Part shown: positions 37,830 through 46,869 of the stretch, in pieces
How the letters are laid out: every line of letters starts with the position of its first letter
Numbering within the stretch: the stretch's first letter is position 1
Origin: Oscillospiraceae bacterium
GTDB lineage: Bacteria > Bacillota > Clostridia > Oscillospirales > Ruminococcaceae
NCBI GenBank assembly: GCA_017460835.1
Contig: JAFUAD010000040.1
Location: forward strand, 1-47,940
Reading direction: 5' to 3'
Length of the DNA: 47,940 nucleotides
The notes under the pieces: generated by a model
Database searches by the model: none
The model's input: only the letters and a program-made list of their open reading frames with translations
What the model was told of the DNA's origin: nothing
Made by a program: the position numbers and the translations under genes

Positions 37830-39902
37830 TTGGAAAGGGTAATCAGCCTCGCGGCGCTTCCGATCGGAGAAAGCGGAACCGTAACGGAGATCCGTGAGGA
37901 TGAAGCACAGCGAAACCGGCTTGCGCAGCTCGGCATCATTCCGGGCACGGTGCTGACATGCAGGCTGCGCGGCGCGGGCGGCTCGCCGGTCGCCTTTACA
38001 GTGCGCGGCGTGACACTGGCGCTCCGGTCATCGCAGTGTGAGCATATTCTCCTGAAGCCGACCGCATCCGCTGAGAGCGGCACTTCAGCGCGTACATATC
38101 TTCTCGCCGGCAATCCGAATGTCGGCAAAAGCACCGTTTTCAACGCATTGACCGGCATGAAGCAGCACACGGGGAACTGGTGCGGCAAGACTGTCACGGG
38201 CGCGGAGGGCAGCCTTCGCTTCCGCGGCATTCCGATCCGCCTGATCGACACGCCCGGCACCTATTCCGCAGCATCCGATACCGCGGAGGAAGCGGCTGCC
38301 GCTGAGATCATCCGGCAGACGCCGCATGACTGCGTGATCTGCGTCTGTGACGCGACAGCGCCGGAGCGTGGGCTGCGGCTGGCACTGGAGCTTCTGGCGC
38401 TGGACAGCCGCGTGGTGCTATGCTTCAATCTCATGGACGAAGCGAAGAAAAAGGGCATCCGCATCGACACGGAGGCGCTCTCTGCGGCGCTGCATATTCC
38501 GGTCATCGGCATCACCGCACGGGATAAGCGCACGCTTCCGCCCCTGCTGGAGGCAGCGGAGCAGGTCTCCGCACAGGCGCCCGGCAAGGCTGATCTGCCG
38601 GAAATGACCCTGCCGCAGATATTGGAAAAGGCCGCAGAATTGCAGAAAAGCTGCACGGTCATCCCGCCGCACCCGCACCCGCGGACTGAGGCCGCCGACC
38701 GGCTCCTGACCGGAAAAGCGCTGCGAATCCCGGCGATGCTGGTGCTGCTCGCGGTGACCTTCTGGATCACGCTGATCGGGGCAAATTACCCCTCTGCATG
38801 GCTGTCATCGCTGTTTTCGGCAGTTTGCAGCGGATTGATGCAGATTTGCGATCAAAACAGCGTTCCTGTGTGGCTCTCCGGCGCGCTGGTGGACGGCGTC
38901 CTGCGCGGTACGGGCTGGGTCATCTCGGTCATGCTCCCGCCGATGGCGATTTTCTTCCCGCTGTTCACGGTTCTGGAGGATATCGGACTGCTGCCGCGGC
39001 TTGCGTTCAATATGGACCGAAGCTGTGCGAAATGCCGGGCGTGCGGCAAGCAGGCATTGACCATGACAATGGGCTTTGGATGCAACGCGGTCGGCGTGAC
39101 GGAATGCCGCATCATCGAAAGCCGCCGGGAGCGCCTCATCGCGATCCTGACAAACGCGCTGGTTCCCTGCAACGGCAGATTCCCGACGCTTCTTGCGATC
39201 ATCACGGTGTTTTTCGCCGGAGACAGCCGCATGGGGTCACTCCGCGCGGCGTGCATGATGACGCTGCTGATTCTCCTGAGCGTCGCGGTCACCTTTGCCG
39301 CATCGGCGCTGCTCGGCAAGACGGTGCTGCGCGGGCAGCCCTCGTCATTTGTGCTGGAGCTGCCGCCGTACCGCCGCCCGCAGCTCCGGCGCATTTTGAT
39401 CCGCTCTGTGCTCGACCGGACAGTGTTCGTGCTCTGGCGTGCGGTCATGACCGCGGCGCCGGTCAGCCTGCTGATCTGGGTCTGCGCAAATGTACGGGTC
39501 GGCGGCATCAGCATCATCGGGCATCTGGCGTCGGTGCTCGACCCAGCCGGTGCGCTGCTCGGGCTCGACGGCGTGATTCTGCTCGCATTTATTCTCGGCC
39601 TACCGGCGAATGAGATCGTGCTTCCGGTCGCGGTCACTGCCTATCTCGGCACCGCCGCCCTGACCGATTACGGCTCGCTGGCCTCTCTGCATGCACTGCT
39701 CGTCTCGCACGGCTGGACGCAGCTTACTGCGGCATGCTTTCTGCTGTTCACGCTGTTTCATTCGCCCTGCGCGACGACCCTGCTCACGATTCATAAGGAA
39801 ACGCGCAGCAAGCGCTGGACCGCCGCCGCATTTCTGCTCCCGGTCGGCATCGGCATCCTGCTCTGCACCGTTCTCGCGGGCACTGTCCGCATCCTGACAT
39901 AA
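37830..39902 (+). CDS. feoB: Ferrous iron transporter FeoB with fused N-terminal FeoA domain
   Basis: A 690-residue Fe(II) uptake protein. Residues 1-77 are a FeoA/SH3-like domain (LPIGESGTVTEIREDE, LAQLGIIPGT), normally a separate small protein. The G domain follows: G1 GNPNVGKST near 93-101, DTPGTYS, and NLMDEA for G4. The membrane domain holds about eight helices with PLFTVLEDIGLLPRLAFNMDR, CGKQALTMTMGFGCNAVGVTECRI and ALVPCNGRFPTL, including the conserved cysteines. The start is a TTG, 5 nt after AAGGGGTG. No Fur-type box could be read with confidence in the 57 nt upstream. Confidence 0.95.
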   Translation: MERVISLAALPIGESGTVTEIREDEAQRNRLAQLGIIPGTVLTCRLRGAGGSPVAFTVRGVTLALRSSQCEHILLKPTASAESGTSARTYLLAGNPNVGKSTVFNALTGMKQHTGNWCGKTVTGAEGSLRFRGIPIRLIDTPGTYSAASDTAEEAAAAEIIRQTPHDCVICVCDATAPERGLRLALELLALDSRVVLCFNLMDEAKKKGIRIDTEALSAALHIPVIGITARDKRTLPPLLEAAEQVSAQAPGKADLPEMTLPQILEKAAELQKSCTVIPPHPHPRTEAADRLLTGKALRIPAMLVLLAVTFWITLIGANYPSAWLSSLFSAVCSGLMQICDQNSVPVWLSGALVDGVLRGTGWVISVMLPPMAIFFPLFTVLEDIGLLPRLAFNMDRSCAKCRACGKQALTMTMGFGCNAVGVTECRIIESRRERLIAILTNALVPCNGRFPTLLAIITVFFAGDSRMGSLRAACMMTLLILLSVAVTFAASALLGKTVLRGQPSSFVLELPPYRRPQLRRILIRSVLDRTVFVLWRAVMTAAPVSLLIWVCANVRVGGISIIGHLASVLDPAGALLGLDGVILLAFILGLPANEIVLPVAVTAYLGTAALTDYGSLASLHALLVSHGWTQLTAACFLLFTLFHSPCATTLLTIHKETRSKRWTAAAFLLPVGIGILLCTVLAGTVRILT

Positions 39903-40068: not shown

Positions 40069-42840
40069 TTATTGCTTCACGCAGTAGACCAGGAAGCCCT
40101 CCACGTTATCGCCGGACACAACCGGCTCTGCGCCGACCGGATACTGAATATCGGTCGTTGCAGCGGTCTCGGAGGCCGGAACATAGTACATCTCATAGGT
40201 CACACCGCCCGCGGTCGCAGTCAGGTGCTCCTTTTCCCATGTATGCACCGAAATCTTCTCGAGGTACTCCTCAAGCGTCAGATCGTTGTCCGCCATGTAC
40301 TTGGCGTGCGGGATGCCGACATAACGGAAGTGCCATGTCTTGCCCTCCAGTCCGGTCTGCTCCTCCTTGCCCTCCGGGTAACGGACAATGAAGCCGTACT
40401 CGGCGGCATGATCGCTCAGCCATGCATAATCCCCGTCCGGGGTATAGGGCTTGTGCGTCTTCTTTGCCTCATCCAGAATTGCAAGATCCAGTGTCAGGCC
40501 GGAAGCGCGCTCCGGAATCTGTACGCCGTAGGGAACGGCCGCAGAAACCGCCGCAGTCGGCTGCTGATTGGTGCAGTATACCATGATATTGCCGTGGCCG
40601 GTCGCTGCGTAGAAATCGCTGATCCAGCGCTTCAGATCGGCGGACATGGAGCTGTCGAACTGGAGATAGGTGCTGGTCAGGCGGATATGATCCACCTTGA
40701 CATCTGCAAATGTCACGAGCGACGGGTTAAAGGTCTGCTGGTGATCTGCGTCGATCAGAACAGCGCTGCCGTGGTGCAGCTCGTCATTGTTCACAGTCAG
40801 AACGGAGGTATCTCTGGTTTCAACATCCGCACCGCCGCCGTCCGAGGTATCGGAAACCGGCGAGGTGGAAATCATGGTAGAGGTGGTCGTCGAGACCGCC
40901 GCCTCCTGCGTGGAGGTCGTCGAGGTCTGCTCGGCAACATCCGGAACACTGTCAACAGCGGAATCGGGCTCAGAGGAATCGCTGCTCTGGATGCTCAGCA
41001 TATCCTTGTCGCGATGCCAGCTGTCCCATGCTCTGCGGCAGAAGTCGATCGCAAAGATGCCGAGAATGACAAAGGTCAGAATCAGCGCGATCTTTCCGTA
41101 ATCGAAGCCGCCCTCCCCGGCAAGCTCGTCGTCATCATAATCCGCCGGCGGTTCATCTCCGCCGTCCGGTGCATCAGGCTGCTCATTGCTGCGCTGCGAT
41201 TTTCTGCGGAAGGGACTGCGCAGCGCAAAGCCGGCTGCCGCCCTGTCATCATCCGCATCGTCATAGCTCTCGCCGTCATCGTAGCCCTCGGCGTCATCAT
41301 AGTCGCCGTAGCCGTCCTGATCGTAGTTATCATCGCCGAAATCGTCCGCGAAGTCGTCAGTCTCGTCAAAAACGGGCTCCTCCGGCTCCTCCTCGGTATT
41401 CTTCCAGACAAATTTCCGCTGCTTGGTCTTGGCAATCTCCTGCTCGGGTTCCTCGGCAGCAGGCGCCTCCTCAGCCGGTGCATCGTCCTCTGCGAAGAAG
41501 TCGTCCTCCTCCTGCACGGCATCCTCCTCAAAGGGGTCTGCGGGCTGCTCTGCCTCATCGGCATCATCCGCGAAGTCCTCGGCTTCCTCGTCCTCTTCGT
41601 CATCCTCCGGGTATTCCGGCTCGGCATTGAGGCTCCGGATCAGCTTGCGGAACGGATTGGTAATCCGGAACAGCAGCGAGGGCTTCTCCTCGCCTTCTGC
41701 ATCATAGGATTCGCCCTCATACTCGTCGCCGAAGGCAGGCTCCTCCTGAATATCCTCACCGTCGTAGTCCTCCTCAGCGTAGGATTCCTCCTCCGGCTCA
41801 CTGTCATCCCCGTCATAGGGCTCCTCGTCATAGGATTCCCCGTCGGCGAAGTCCGCAGCGCTTTCGGCAGCTTCCTCTGCGAGCTCCTCCGTCACGGTCC
41901 CGTCCTCATCCTCCGGGATGAAATCTGCGTCTGCATCGTCCTCGTCGTCATCATCGAAATCGTCGAAGATAAAGTCGAATTCATCCTCCTCATTCACATC
42001 GGAATCCGCCTCGGAGAACAGCTCCTCTGTCTCCTTCACTTCCTCGTCGAATGAATCCGCCTGTTGATTCCGTTTCTTCTGCGGATCCGGGCGATTCCCC
42101 TGCTGTCCGCGTCTCTGATTCTGCTTGCTCATCTCGTTCTCTGTAGCCTCCGATTCAATTGTTTCGTTCTGCTTTGTCTCCGAATTCGCCTTTTGCTGCA
42201 TCTGCCGGTCGGGCAGTGCGATTCTCGCCGGTATTTCCGGCTCCTTCACGGTCAAAAGCCCGGACACGCGATCCGTCATTTCGCGCCGGATCTGCTTCAG
42301 CACCGCCGGGGAAGGGTCCCCTGCATCCGTCTCCGGAACATCGAACGGTGCGCCGTACCGAACTAAGATTTTGCTCCGGAAATGCAGCTTGCCGTCGAAC
42401 ACGATCGCAACCGGCACGACCGGAACGCCGGTCTGTGCAGCAAGGAGTGCGGCGCCTGTTTTGAAATGCCCGAGTGTACCGTCCTTTGAGCGGGTGCCCT
42501 CCGGAAAGACCAGTGCGTTCTCTCCGTTTTGCAGGCGGTAGGCGATCTCCTCCAGTGCCGTGACATCTCCCGCACCGCGGTCAATTGCGACGCCGCCGAG
42601 CTTCCGGAGCAGCCAGCCGACCAGTCCGTCGGAGAAGAGCTCCTGCTTGGCGAGGAAGCAAAACTGCGTTTCCTTATTCTGAATTCCGATCAGAATGGGA
42701 TCCGCATTGCTGCGGTGGTTGCTGATATAGAGGTATCCGCTCTCGTGCGGAACATTCTCCATACCCTCTGTTTCGATCTTATACCAAAGCGGCATCAGCA
42801 GCCGCATCACGCGCATGGCGAATTTATAAAACCTGTTCAT
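40069..42840 (-). CDS. PlsC acyltransferase fused in frame to an acidic, membrane-anchored VanY-like domain
   Basis: One uninterrupted frame of 923 residues. Residues 1-205 are a 1-acylglycerol-3-phosphate acyltransferase with SNHRSNAD (HX4D) and FPEGTRSKDG, which should make phosphatidic acid at the membrane. After a polar bridge, residues about 237-580 are disordered and extremely rich in Asp and Glu. One membrane helix (about 582-600) and a Ser/Thr-rich stretch lead to an extracellular VanY/M15B-like domain (about 690-870). There the zinc motif reads ERASGLTLD (His replaced by Arg778, Asp785 kept) and GKTWHFRYVG (catalytic Glu replaced by Lys834, His837 kept), so it is probably inactive. 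ATG 42132 (MSKQNQRR) could start the second half as a separate protein. It overlaps cmk by 4 nt. Confidence 0.85.
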   Translation of the reverse strand: MNRFYKFAMRVMRLLMPLWYKIETEGMENVPHESGYLYISNHRSNADPILIGIQNKETQFCFLAKQELFSDGLVGWLLRKLGGVAIDRGAGDVTALEEIAYRLQNGENALVFPEGTRSKDGTLGHFKTGAALLAAQTGVPVVPVAIVFDGKLHFRSKILVRYGAPFDVPETDAGDPSPAVLKQIRREMTDRVSGLLTVKEPEIPARIALPDRQMQQKANSETKQNETIESEATENEMSKQNQRRGQQGNRPDPQKKRNQQADSFDEEVKETEELFSEADSDVNEEDEFDFIFDDFDDDDEDDADADFIPEDEDGTVTEELAEEAAESAADFADGESYDEEPYDGDDSEPEEESYAEEDYDGEDIQEEPAFGDEYEGESYDAEGEEKPSLLFRITNPFRKLIRSLNAEPEYPEDDEEDEEAEDFADDADEAEQPADPFEEDAVQEEDDFFAEDDAPAEEAPAAEEPEQEIAKTKQRKFVWKNTEEEPEEPVFDETDDFADDFGDDNYDQDGYGDYDDAEGYDDGESYDDADDDRAAAGFALRSPFRRKSQRSNEQPDAPDGGDEPPADYDDDELAGEGGFDYGKIALILTFVILGIFAIDFCRRAWDSWHRDKDMLSIQSSDSSEPDSAVDSVPDVAEQTSTTSTQEAAVSTTTSTMISTSPVSDTSDGGGADVETRDTSVLTVNNDELHHGSAVLIDADHQQTFNPSLVTFADVKVDHIRLTSTYLQFDSSMSADLKRWISDFYAATGHGNIMVYCTNQQPTAAVSAAVPYGVQIPERASGLTLDLAILDEAKKTHKPYTPDGDYAWLSDHAAEYGFIVRYPEGKEEQTGLEGKTWHFRYVGIPHAKYMADNDLTLEEYLEKISVHTWEKEHLTATAGGVTYEMYYVPASETAATTDIQYPVGAEPVVSGDNVEGFLVYCVKQ

Positions 42841-43508
42841 AGACCGAGCTTCTCCTTACACACATCCAGCAGCATCTGCTCGGATTCATCGAGATCCGCT
42901 TCTGATGTGTCCACAAGAACAGCGTCCTCTGCCTGCCGCAGCGGGGAGATTTCCCGGTTCATATCCTGCTCATCCCTTCGGATGACATCGCGCAGGACAT
43001 CCTCATAGGTCTGGGCGCCGGGCTGTTTTTCCTCCAACTCCAGAAAGCGCCGCTGCGCACGGGTTTCCGCAGAGGCGGTCAGATAGATCTTGACCTCTGC
43101 ATCCGGCAGCACGACCGTACCGATATCCCGCCCGTCCATGACGACGGAATGCTCCTCAGCGAGCGACTGCTGAAGCCGGAACAGGAATTCGCGCACCGCC
43201 GGAATCGCGGAAACGCGGGATGCCGCCATTGAAACCTCCGCAGTCCGGATATACGGTGTCACATCCTCGCCGTTTGCAAAGACATGCTGTTCTCCTTCGA
43301 GATAATCCATTGTCACGGTCAGGCCGGAAAGCTTTCCGGTGATCTCCTCCTCAGTCTCCGCATGCTCGCGCAGCATCCAGAGGGCGATGGTTCTGTAAAG
43401 CGCGCCGGTATCGACATACAGACATCCGAGCGCCCGCGCAAGTCTGCGGGCGAGGGTGCTTTTTCCCGCGCCGGAGGGTCCGTCAACCGCAATATTATAA
43501 TGCCGCAT
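42837..43508 (-). CDS. cmk: Cytidylate kinase
   Basis: Phosphorylates CMP and dCMP in pyrimidine nucleotide recycling. The 223-residue protein shows the P-loop VDGPSGAGKSTLARRLA, LYVDTGALYRTIAL, and the CMP-binding DGRDIGTVVLPDAEVKIYLTAS. Upstream frame extension by six codons is possible, but ATG 43508 has GGAGG at 7 nt spacing and matches homologues. The plsC part of the next gene overlaps its stop by 4 nt; cmk-plsC order is common in clostridia, often followed by ispH, which is not found here. It has its own promoter. Confidence 0.97.
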   Translation of the reverse strand: MRHYNIAVDGPSGAGKSTLARRLARALGCLYVDTGALYRTIALWMLREHAETEEEITGKLSGLTVTMDYLEGEQHVFANGEDVTPYIRTAEVSMAASRVSAIPAVREFLFRLQQSLAEEHSVVMDGRDIGTVVLPDAEVKIYLTASAETRAQRRFLELEEKQPGAQTYEDVLRDVIRRDEQDMNREISPLRQAEDAVLVDTSEADLDESEQMLLDVCKEKLGL

Positions 43509-43547
43509 GAAGCTTCCTCCATCCATACTTCTAGTAACCCGTTTATA

Positions 43548-43576
43548 ATTATATCATATTTCGACGCAATTTTCAA
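43548..43576 (-). promoter_or_regulatory. Sigma-A promoter of cmk-plsC
   Basis: TTGAAA (43571-43576) and perfect TATAAT (43548-43553) with 17 nt spacing on the minus strand, about 40 nt upstream of the cmk ATG. Confidence 0.8.
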
Positions 43577-43716: not shown

Positions 43717-46700
43717 TCAGAGCTTTACCTGAATGGCAAGGTCCTGATTGAGTCCCGCAAGGAACTTCAGGAGCTTGGTCAGGTCTGCGGCATTGGTCGT
43801 ACCGTCGAGGTTGCAGTCTGCATTGAGCTTGCCCTGCGCGGTAATGCCGGTGGCGGTGTCCTCCGCCGTAACTCTCGCGAGCATGACGGCATCGAGCACA
43901 TCGACGGAGCCGTTGCAGTCCGCATCGCCGAGGTAAACGGTCATTTCGCCCTGGCCGGAGGTTGTGCCCGGTTCAATCTGGCTCTCGCGCTCCTGTGCCA
44001 GAACCGCGTAGTTCACAACAGAGGTTGCAGTGCCGTTGTCGCCGAGCGTGACGGTCTCGCCCGCGCTGAAGTCCTTCTGATAGACGTAGAAATTGACGTC
44101 CTTGTCATTTGCCAGCGTCAGATCGGTCTTGGTCCAGTCGCTGAGCCATGCCGGAAATGCATTCTGCACATCGACAACGCGCTGGTCGAGCACCACCGAA
44201 ACGGTGATATCCTTGCCCGCAGTGAACTCTGCGAGGGTGCCGGATTCGGTCTTGCTGTCGCAGGCGGTCACGATCATTTCCGCGCCTGCCAGCGCATCCG
44301 GAACGACCGTGAACACGACCTCGCGGTCGCCGAACACCAGATCGCCGGCAGCGAGAGAGCTGTCGATCGACCAGCCGTTCTTGTGTGCGCGGTCATAGAC
44401 CAGCAGATTTTTGACGAGGTTGCCGTTGATCGGAACGATCACCGGTTCGAGGATCCACGACTGATTTGCAGTGCCGTCGAGCTCCCACTCGATGACATTT
44501 GCGCCGTCGTCCTTCGAGCCGCCGGTGACGCCGATGCCGCTCGCGTCCTCAGTCACAGCGGTCGTGATGAGATAGGTGCCGTCGCCGTTATCGACGAGCT
44601 TGAAGAGCTGTGCATCGGAATTGGTATTGTTCCAGAGCCCGATGTTCGTGCCGTTGTCGGTCTGGCCGTAGTCGATATCGAGCAAATGAGAATCGTCTGC
44701 GTAGAAATAGTAGTAGCCGCTGCCTGCATCCTTCAGGGTCCATTTTGTCGCATTTTCCTTCGCGGTCTGGATGACATTGGTGCCGTTCTGGAGCGTATCG
44801 GATTCTGCGGAGAGGTACAGATTGCTGTTCAGGTTGCGGATCTGATAGATTTCGGTAGTATCAACGGATGCGCCTGCTTTCTTGGTCGAGGCCGAGCCGT
44901 TGATGACAACATTCGGACGAGCCGGAAGCGGCTGATCGGAGCCGAGATAGAAGCTCGGATGCGGCGGCTGGTTATAAGCCGTCTGCTGAGAGGAAACCTG
45001 TGTGCGGTACTGCGGGTCATGCATCAGCGTGGTGATGCGGTAATCGGTATCATAGGTCGTCGCAAAGATGCGGATCGACTTGCCGTCTGCCGCACGGACG
45101 ATCAGCTCCTCGCGCCAGTCGCCGAAGATATCGGCGGAGAGGCACGGTGTGCCCTTCGTGGTGTTGCAGGTATAGTAGCCGTCGGTGACGAGCAGATTGG
45201 TAATGGTGGTCTTGCCGGCCTCGCCGGTCATCTTGGAGATGGTCGCCGGGGAATCGGTGTAACCGTCGAGAATCTCGCGCTCAAGGTCGCCGTCCCAGTA
45301 GCTCAGGAAGTTGATTGCCGGTCTGCGGCAGTTGAGCACGGTGCCGGACGTATTGACAACCGGCGTCGAGCCGTCGGAGACCTTGTTGCCCCAGCACTCA
45401 GCGCCCGGATTGCCCGCCCATACATTGTCCGCGCAGCATCTGCCGGTATCGCCGGCGCCGTTCTGGTGATACAGAATCTTCTTCTGGTCGCAGTCGATCA
45501 GGGAGACGCCGTAGCCCGAGACGCTTTCCTCGTGGCAGATCCAGAGCTCAAGCCCGGGGTTCGAGGGATCGAGGTCGCCCAGATGCAGCGCATCGCCGTG
45601 GCCCTGATTGGTGCAGTAGAACATTGTACCGTTGTCATCAATGATCGAAGGGCCGTTGCAGACCTCCTGCTTGCCGTCGCCGTCAACGTCCGCTGCCATA
45701 GAGTTGTGGTTGCCGTCGCCGTAGCCGGGAGAGCTGCTGCTCGTTCCGGAATCGAACATCCACAGCTTCTTGAGCTTCTTGTTCTCGACGGAATAAGCCG
45801 TCGCAGTCATTCTGCCGTAGTAGCCGCGGCCGGTGACAACGCTCGGATGCACGCCGTCGAGATATGCGACGGTGCCCCAGAAGCGGTCAACACGGTTGGT
45901 CTTGTCGCTGGATTTGCCCCATGCGGTGGTGGTGCCTCTGCCCGGCTCATAGTTGACCGTATCGAGCGCCGCGCCGGTCAGGCCGTCAAAGAGCGTGTAA
46001 TATTCGGGGCCTGTGATGATAAAGCCGCTCGAATTGCGATAATCCTTCGATGCATCGCCGATGACCTTTCCGGTGCCGTCGGTGGTGCCGTCGGCGGTCT
46101 TGCAGGTCATTTCCGCTTTGCCGTCGAGGTCGAAATCGGCGACATAGAACTGCGTATAATGCGCACCTGCGCGGATATTCACGCCGAGATTGATGCGCCA
46201 GAGGCGGGTGCCGTTGAGCTTGTAGCAGTCGATGTAAACCGGATCGGTCTTGCCGGACTGGGAGTTGTCCTTGGAATTGGACGGATCCCATTTGAGGAAG
46301 ATTTCATACTGCCCGTCGCCGTCTACATCGCCGACGGAGCAGTCGTTCGGGGTATAGCCCGAGCCCGGCTGCGAGAGCTTGATGTCGAAATAGTTGCCGT
46401 TCGAGATGAGCGAGCAGGAATCAGAGGTGATGACTCTGCTTCCGCTGACATAATCGACGCGGTACTTGGAGCTTGCGCTGCCGCCCTTGTCAAGGTAGCA
46501 GGTGCTCTGCCCGGATTCGCTGGTGTAGATCAGCGTGTTGTCGCGGTAGAGGTTGAATACGGCGGTGTCGCTGTCGGAGGCGAGCCAGCGCCAGCTTACC
46601 AGCATGCCCGAGCCGGTGTTGACGGCGGAGATGCCGCGGTCAAGGAATTCAACGGTCTGCGTGCCGGTGGAGCCGGTAATGGCAGCGCTGACAGGCAGCG

Positions 46701-46785
46701 TGTTTGCGGCATGCAGGCTGAGTCCGGCGAGCGCCGTCGGCAGGGTCATGGCTGCCGCGAGGGTCTTTCTCAGTGATTGTTTCAT
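43717..46785 (-). CDS. Secreted rhamnogalacturonan lyase (PL11-like) with ricin-type lectin domain and dockerin
   Basis: A 1022-residue secreted enzyme that should cleave the rhamnogalacturonan-I backbone of pectin. A signal peptide (about 1-35) is followed by a beta domain (VEFLDRGISAVNTGSGMLVSW), then the calcium-rich beta-propeller of family PL11 with repeated DVDGDGQYE-type loops and blocks such as FDGLTGAALDTVNYEPGRG and HPSFYLGSDQPLPARPNV. Residues about 645-790 form a ricin-like carbohydrate-binding module, and about 948-1022 a dockerin with two calcium-binding repeats (GDADCNGSVDVLDA and NADCNLDGTTNAAD). The dockerin implies docking to a cohesin scaffold. ATG 46785 has GGGGAG 7 nt upstream. 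A palindrome overlaps its promoter. Confidence 0.93.
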   Translation of the reverse strand: MKQSLRKTLAAAMTLPTALAGLSLHAANTLPVSAAITGSTGTQTVEFLDRGISAVNTGSGMLVSWRWLASDSDTAVFNLYRDNTLIYTSESGQSTCYLDKGGSASSKYRVDYVSGSRVITSDSCSLISNGNYFDIKLSQPGSGYTPNDCSVGDVDGDGQYEIFLKWDPSNSKDNSQSGKTDPVYIDCYKLNGTRLWRINLGVNIRAGAHYTQFYVADFDLDGKAEMTCKTADGTTDGTGKVIGDASKDYRNSSGFIITGPEYYTLFDGLTGAALDTVNYEPGRGTTTAWGKSSDKTNRVDRFWGTVAYLDGVHPSVVTGRGYYGRMTATAYSVENKKLKKLWMFDSGTSSSSPGYGDGNHNSMAADVDGDGKQEVCNGPSIIDDNGTMFYCTNQGHGDALHLGDLDPSNPGLELWICHEESVSGYGVSLIDCDQKKILYHQNGAGDTGRCCADNVWAGNPGAECWGNKVSDGSTPVVNTSGTVLNCRRPAINFLSYWDGDLEREILDGYTDSPATISKMTGEAGKTTITNLLVTDGYYTCNTTKGTPCLSADIFGDWREELIVRAADGKSIRIFATTYDTDYRITTLMHDPQYRTQVSSQQTAYNQPPHPSFYLGSDQPLPARPNVVINGSASTKKAGASVDTTEIYQIRNLNSNLYLSAESDTLQNGTNVIQTAKENATKWTLKDAGSGYYYFYADDSHLLDIDYGQTDNGTNIGLWNNTNSDAQLFKLVDNGDGTYLITTAVTEDASGIGVTGGSKDDGANVIEWELDGTANQSWILEPVIVPINGNLVKNLLVYDRAHKNGWSIDSSLAAGDLVFGDREVVFTVVPDALAGAEMIVTACDSKTESGTLAEFTAGKDITVSVVLDQRVVDVQNAFPAWLSDWTKTDLTLANDKDVNFYVYQKDFSAGETVTLGDNGTATSVVNYAVLAQERESQIEPGTTSGQGEMTVYLGDADCNGSVDVLDAVMLARVTAEDTATGITAQGKLNADCNLDGTTNAADLTKLLKFLAGLNQDLAIQVKL

Positions 46786-46869
46786 ACTTCTTCTCCCCAA
46801 AGTCTCATTGTGGCAGTGCTGCTTTCTGTCTGTTGCAGCATTCTATATATTGCGTCAGGTTACAGTTTT

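What the first reader, a model, noticed from the sequence alone, without database searches (positions are those of the whole stretch)
40069..42840. PlsC acyltransferase fused to an acidic transmembrane protein ending in a degenerate VanY domain
The frame is unbroken for 923 codons. The N-terminal third is an intact PlsC acyltransferase in its usual place after cmk. The rest is a strongly acidic disordered region, one membrane helix and an outside VanY/M15B-like domain in which the zinc-ligand His is Arg778 and the catalytic Glu is Lys834, while Asp785, Trp836 and His837 remain. Established: M15B peptidases need SxHxxGxxxD and ExWH. Inference: a pseudo-peptidase that still senses or binds peptidoglycan may be tied to phospholipid synthesis, linking membrane and wall growth. 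An internal ATG at 42132 could give a separate second protein.
Basis: partly seen in the sequence, partly recalled or inferred. Interest (0 to 1): 0.75.

Follow-up and report, generated by a model that had tools for sequence, protein, structure and literature searches.

The report
Lipid enzyme fused to dead wall-peptidase
In one group of related bacteria the enzyme that finishes the basic membrane-lipid precursor is fused to a membrane-spanning protein whose outer part looks like a disabled cell-wall peptidase, and a conserved ribosome-binding site inside the gene suggests that the wall part may also be made on its own.

Summary
Minus-strand ORF 40069-42840 is one 923-codon frame: intact PlsC (PF01553, E 1.2e-31), linker, acidic region (net -113), one membrane helix, and a VanXYG-like domain with Arg778 at a zinc-His position and Lys834 at the catalytic Glu. 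It is not an assembly error: of 30 genus genomes 13 (window included) have the whole fusion, 2 have PlsC running into the acidic part up to a contig end, 11 have two adjacent genes, 2 show only the second part at a contig end, 2 show none. The dead site is constrained: Arg in 26 of 26 genus rows aligned, never Glu at 834. In three genomes of two other genera a like pseudo-peptidase gene follows an S11 DD-carboxypeptidase gene. New: 15 of 15 fused genes keep an internal ATG with a strong Shine-Dalgarno site, conserved inside a diverged linker and written with rare serine codons. Best reading: one gene, two products, a wall-anchored PlsC and a free pseudo-VanY membrane protein, placing phosphatidate synthesis at wall-growth sites. 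Architecture, dead site and conserved internal RBS are shown by sequence; topology, two products, wall binding and coordination are inferred.

The parts
43548..43576 (-). promoter-like site before cmk (TTGAAA-17-TATAAT)
   Evidence: 11 of 12 consensus matches; 4 sites found in the region against 1.9 expected; a consensus match only
42837..43526 (-). cmk, cytidylate kinase; its stop overlaps the plsC ATG by 4 bases
   Evidence: PF02224 E 5.7e-69; overlap
40069..42840 (-). fused gene, 923 codons and stop
42226..42840 (-). PlsC part, residues 1-205, with NHRSNAD at 41 and FPEGTR at 112
   Evidence: PF01553, TIGR00530, motifs
42133..42225 (-). linker, residues 206-236
   Evidence: stop-free in 15 of 15 fused genes; dN/dS 0.17-0.58 in ten pairs
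42147..42155 (-). internal Shine-Dalgarno element AATCGGAGG, ending 14 nt before ATG 42132
42130..42132 (-). internal ATG, Met237; product of 687 aa if used
   Evidence: an ATG for MS[KRN] is kept in 15 of 15 fused genes
41092..42132 (-). acidic, probably disordered part, residues 237-583
   Evidence: net charge -113, 40% Asp+Glu
41632..41676 (-). basic-hydrophobic motif LLFRITNPFRKLIRS, residues 389-403
   Evidence: motif of this kind in 15 of 17 acidic relatives
41191..41232 (-). second, divergent motif GFALRSPFRRKSQR, residues 537-550
41035..41091 (-). membrane helix, about residues 584-602
   Evidence: 19-residue hydropathy up to 2.3
40774..41034 (-). Ser/Thr-rich stretch, residues 603-689
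   Evidence: 34% Ser+Thr
40072..40773 (-). VanXYG-like pseudo-peptidase domain with C-terminal extension, residues 690-923
40507..40509 (-). codon of Arg778, at the first zinc-ligand His position
   Evidence: Arg in 26 of 26 genus rows
40339..40341 (-). codon of Lys834, at the catalytic Glu position
   Evidence: not Glu in 26 of 26 genus rows

Best explanation
The gene makes a membrane-anchored lysophosphatidic-acid acyltransferase. PlsC works in the cytosol; an acidic disordered tether with basic-hydrophobic motifs links it to one membrane helix; outside sits a VanXYG-like domain that has lost a zinc ligand and the catalytic Glu but keeps a conserved pocket, probably for a peptidoglycan stem peptide or a wall partner such as a DD-carboxypeptidase. 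A second product (687 aa, no PlsC) is probably started at Met237 from a conserved internal ribosome-binding site. The likely role is to hold the last step of phosphatidic acid synthesis at places of wall growth, while the free form keeps the older stand-alone job. Shown by sequence: architecture, clade-wide fusion, constrained dead site, conserved internal RBS, wall-gene neighbours of like genes. Inferred: topology, two products in the cell, wall binding, coordination.
For: Fused frame complete in 13 of 30 genus genomes; linker evolves as coding DNA; PlsC motifs intact and the only PF01553 match of this genome at E 1e-5, with PlsX and PlsY matches present; VanXYG match with C-terminal extension; Arg778, Asp785, Trp836, His837 in 26 of 26 genus rows; VanY-part dN/dS 0.09 and 0.13 in the two pairs measured; like genes directly after an S11 DD-carboxypeptidase gene in G034, G169, G244; internal SD in 15 of 15 fused genes, with codon choice unlikely by chance; MapZ offers a precedent of disordered cytosolic part, one helix and outside domain (abstract).
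Against: No protein, binding or localisation data. No structure could be modelled. Acidic residues before and arginines directly after the helix are the reverse of the positive-inside rule for N-in topology (rule recalled). SD spacing of 14 nt in the window is long. Seven other in-frame ATGs in the 15 frames score as well on SD energy. One acidic congener (G016) keeps two genes, so fusion is not needed for the acidic form.
Confidence: 0.45

Rival explanations
1. Tolerated operon fusion without coupling: a stop was lost between two co-transcribed genes, PlsC bears the tail, and internal initiation or cleavage in the linker still supplies the separate pseudo-VanY protein. The fusion itself has no special job.
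For: The genes are adjacent and separate in 11 congeners; the internal SD is kept; the linker is weakly constrained.
Against: The fused frame stays open in 15 of 15 genes through linkers of 35-158 codons, and no re-split is certain (G016 is unresolved).
Confidence: 0.33
2. Only the full-length fusion is made; the internal SD is a relic or a ribosome pause site that helps membrane insertion.
For: Spacing of 14 nt in 11 of 15 fused genes, against 8-11 nt by eye in 8 of the 9 split congeners printed (14 in G015).
Against: The element and its ATG are conserved while the linker around has diverged; four genes have AGGAG at 12 nt.
Confidence: 0.12
3. The outside domain is still catalytic with another metal site or mechanism.
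For: Asp785 and His837 are kept.
Against: First ligand His is Arg, and the Glu position is variable and never Glu, in 26 of 26 genus rows. In G009 and G022 a Glu stands at the neighbouring position 835.
Confidence: 0.04
4. Sequencing or assembly artefact joining two genes.
For: The genome is a draft of 103 contigs, 88% complete.
Against: The same fused frame in 12 other genomes and low dN/dS.
Confidence: 0.01

Closest known systems
PlsC, 1-acylglycerol-3-phosphate O-acyltransferase (PF01553, TIGR00530)
   Same: Both motifs, profile match over TIGR00530's cut-off, place right after cmk
   Different: About 720 extra residues with a membrane helix and an outside-type domain
VanXYG and VanY-A/F/M type M15B peptidases (4f78)
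   Same: Domain match including the C-terminal extension
   Different: Arg for the first zinc His and Lys for the catalytic Glu; scores far under the NCBIfam cut-offs (86 against 425 bits, 78 against 500)
LdcB LD-carboxypeptidase (4ox5)
   Same: Shares the YGFxxRY...WHxRYVG part
   Different: LdcB has His153, Asp160 and His207 as zinc ligands and an invariant Glu204 (PMC4087270, passages); here two of these four are changed
MapZ of Streptococcus pneumoniae (analogy only)
   Same: Disordered cytosolic part, one helix, outside domain (PMC7055233, abstract and outline)
   Different: No sequence match to MapZ was found: Pfam gave only PlsC and VanY; no enzyme is fused to MapZ as far as I recall
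Genes with an in-frame internal start, such as archaeal Cas11b
   Same: Longer and shorter product from one frame (PMC11899642, listing and start of abstract)
   Different: Here the start looks like that of a formerly separate gene and no product has been observed

Membership tests
PlsC / LPAAT (PF01553, TIGR00530) | profile match over curated cut-off | tested here: met
   109.7 against 23 bits; 106.1 against 102.95 bits
PlsC / LPAAT (PF01553, TIGR00530) | NHxxxxD and FPEGTR motifs | tested here: met
   residues 41 and 112
PlsC / LPAAT (PF01553, TIGR00530) | acyltransferase activity | not testable with these tools
   needs complementation or assay
M15B peptidases (VanY, VanXY, LdcB) | domain homology | tested here: met
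   PF02557 44.7 against 25 bits; 4f78 E 8.9e-23
M15B peptidases (VanY, VanXY, LdcB) | zinc ligands His, Asp, His | tested here: not met
   Arg778, Asp785, His837
M15B peptidases (VanY, VanXY, LdcB) | catalytic Glu of the ExxH motif | tested here: not met
   Lys834
MapZ-type wall-to-cytosol protein (works like) | one membrane helix between a disordered cytosolic part and an outside domain | tested here: inconclusive
   one strong helix and acidic part by sequence; charge pattern does not settle topology
MapZ-type wall-to-cytosol protein (works like) | outside domain binds peptidoglycan | not testable with these tools
   needs a binding assay

The most novel reading that the evidence does not exclude
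A dual-product gene forms a transmembrane wall-to-lipid control: the pseudo-peptidase outside reads nascent D-Ala-ended peptidoglycan or a DD-carboxypeptidase and, through the tether, sets the place or rate of phosphatidic acid synthesis, while internal initiation sets the ratio of enzyme-bearing to enzyme-free sensors.
Probability: 0.17. Interest if true: 0.85.

Novelty: new variant of a known kind. Interest (0 to 1): 0.6.

Why it matters
How bacteria match membrane growth to wall growth is an open question. A covalent link between the only PlsC found in this genome and a wall-type outside domain, seen complete in 13 genomes of one genus, would make it directly testable: remove or move one end and measure the other. 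It also offers a natural case of a gene fusion that kept the start signal of its second half.

Tried and rejected
The genome-contig scan with the whole protein gave one distant PlsC hit (L035, 34% identity over residues 20-163) and nothing else. Assembly error was rejected. A live peptidase with residues elsewhere was rejected for the aligned part. Is the NPF motif shared with other proteins? In eight genomes 8 of 11 matches of the stricter DNA pattern lie in this gene, controls 0; two of the eight genomes, the window's and G008, had no match; a looser pattern in the window's genome gave 2 matches, one in this gene, against 1 in the control.

A single origin of the fusion is not proved. cmk+PlsC and cmk+PlsC+VanY trees give one fused clade with weak support (71/88, 71/60); the VanY tree puts split G016 inside the fused group (99/95, starred); rpoB (24 of 30 genomes) puts split G009 beside fused G021, though one clade is not rejected (AU p 0.26) and G009 has a second partial rpoB. 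One origin of the R-type dead site is not shown either: the tree needs 2 changes.

Discarded or failed scripts: searches (rpoB tree on wrong frames, thrown away; no rows passed), replaced; one search stopped on an error and was redone. Paper searches for PlsC with VanY, LPAAT with peptidoglycan in Ruminococcus, PlsC with divisome, inactive VanY, and LPAAT fusions listed no report of this protein by title or abstract start; they cover only the held open-access library, and one search listed 15 of 187.

Rows left out: A1 (27 rows) omits G025 and G022 and holds one other-genus row, so the 26 genus rows come from 26 of the 28 genomes with the domain. One search looked at 36 fetched loci plus 3 own paralogues, a sample of the 177 of 197 family-draw and 118 of 197 order-draw genomes with matches at E 1e-20. 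Conservation and codon tests used 7 representatives of 15. dN/dS used ten pairs that share genomes; VanY and acidic values came from 2 of the 10. One search printed 9 of the 11 split congeners' starts.

Full report
Observation. The 923-codon frame is real and lies on the minus strand. Pfam finds an acyltransferase at 21-146 (E 1.2e-31) and the second half of VanY at 780-842 (E 1.4e-11). NCBIfam gives TIGR00530 just over its cut-off and VanY_AFM and VanXY_G far under theirs. The two PlsC motifs are intact. Residues 237-583 are 40% Asp+Glu (net -113); one strong helix follows at about 584-602, then a Ser/Thr-rich stretch and the VanY-like domain. cmk ends over the plsC ATG with a 4-base overlap. 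The strongest promoter-like site of the region lies before cmk (11 of 12 matches), so cmk and the fused gene look like one transcription unit.

The fusion is genuine and wide in one part of the genus. Among 30 genomes (window included), 13 have the complete fusion in one frame; G024 and G019 have PlsC running into the acidic part up to a contig end; G016 has two genes, the second with the acidic part; ten have two adjacent genes with a short second gene that starts at or near the helix; G017 and G022 show only the second part at a contig end; in G012 and G026 (75% and 88% complete) no orthologue was found. The locus tree puts the fused genes together with G016 on one side of a well-supported branch (97/95). 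How many fusions or re-splits occurred is unsettled. The linker from the PlsC end to the internal Met is 35-158 codons long, stop-free in 15 of 15, with dN/dS 0.17-0.58 in ten pairs against 0.02-0.12 for PlsC (some dS values are saturated): it behaves as translated sequence.

The outside-type domain is an old pseudo-enzyme. VanXYG (4f78) is the best solved relative and the match includes the C-terminal extension. LdcB binds zinc by His153, Asp160 and His207 and has an invariant Glu204, though an E204A variant keeps some activity (PMC4087270, passages); VanYn has SxHxxGxAxD and ExxH (PMC3610138, one passage). Here the first ligand is Arg, and Asp, Trp and the last His are kept, in 26 of 26 genus rows; position 834 is Leu 8, Met 7, Cys 2, Asn 2, Lys 2, Ile 2, Gln, Thr, Val, never Glu. 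In G009 and G022 a Glu stands one place later. In a sample of 66 rows, 32 are R-type (31 genes, one counted twice), 19 intact and 15 degenerate in other ways, so catalysis seems to have been lost more than once in this VanY branch. Five R-type genes lie outside the genus; none of the 36 family and order loci examined had plsC or cmk within the fetched flanks.

Neighbours. In G034, G169 and G244 (two other genera) the R-type gene directly follows an S11 D,D-carboxypeptidase gene: by Pfam in G034, by reading the translated frame in G169 and G244. A DUF4846 gene follows in G169 (Pfam) and a like one in G244 (by eye), where dapF comes next (Pfam). In G034 the gene after plsC is ispH-S1, with a gene of the same cluster after plsC in G036 and G030; in the window's genome ispH lies on another contig. 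The pseudo-VanY gene thus appears to stand in the place of ispH.

Internal start. In 15 of 15 fused genes an ATG beginning MS[KRN] follows a strong Shine-Dalgarno site: GGAGG 14 nt upstream in 11, AGGAG 12 nt upstream in 4. All 15 reach -9.3 kcal/mol, against 7 of 197 other in-frame ATGs of these frames (counted); in those genes the other site is as strong. Among 7 representatives, positions -23 to -13 have mean pairwise identity 0.84, against 0.35 and 0.42 further upstream and 0.63 between the element and the ATG. The serine codon in it is TCG or TCA in 14 of 15 genes (Ala GCA in G004), although these are 14% of 131 serine codons nearby; given the amino acids, the codon choice in 7 representatives has a rough log10 probability of -10.9 if they were independent. 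This points to selection on the RNA. The 14-nt spacing is long; of 9 split congeners printed, 8 have 8-11 nt and G015 14 nt, counted by eye.

Motifs. Basic-hydrophobic motifs of the kind [LF]x[KR]NPF[KR]K occur in the acidic part of 15 of 17 genomes that have one (for G024 and G019 on their second contig); G027 and the partial G017 gave none with the pattern used. A stricter DNA pattern is nearly confined to this gene in eight genomes (8 of 11 matches). By analogy with MapZ, whose disordered cytosolic part has two regions that touch liposomes (abstract), they may bind membrane or a partner; this is inference.

Mechanism and limits. The one PF01553 protein found in this genome (88% complete) is this one, and PlsX and PlsY family matches are present, so the fused PlsC probably makes the cell's phosphatidic acid. 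A wall-anchored PlsC plus a free pseudo-VanY protein from one gene uses all these facts. That the anchor serves lipid synthesis is not shown, and a tolerated operon fusion stays close behind. The charges around the helix argue mildly against N-in topology, and no structure could be modelled.

Noticed in passing
G000:C78 (L073) and G000:C101 (L072): Two further degenerate M15B-like proteins in the window's genome; only the C27 copy (L074) keeps His, Asp, Glu and His.
   Followed up: partly
loci L082-L117: Degenerate active sites recur in several forms in this VanY branch: Tyr, Ile, Asn or Cys for the first His, or His kept and Glu lost, in related genera.
   Followed up: partly
window 37830-39902 (+): FeoA and FeoB domains in one protein, convergent with the fused gene; also beside it in 8 congener loci.
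   Followed up: no
window 43717-46800 (-): Rhamnogalacturonan lyase family 11 with ricin-type lectin and dockerin domains upstream of cmk; related ORFs are in the loci of G017, G020, G019 and G024.
   Followed up: no
window 40072-42054 (+): A 660-codon open frame opposite the acidic and VanY parts, probably a by-product of their codons.
   Followed up: no
G012 and G026: No orthologue of the fused gene or its plsC found; their best PF01553 hits are weaker, different places. By rpoB G026 sits among fused species. Gap or loss.
   Followed up: no
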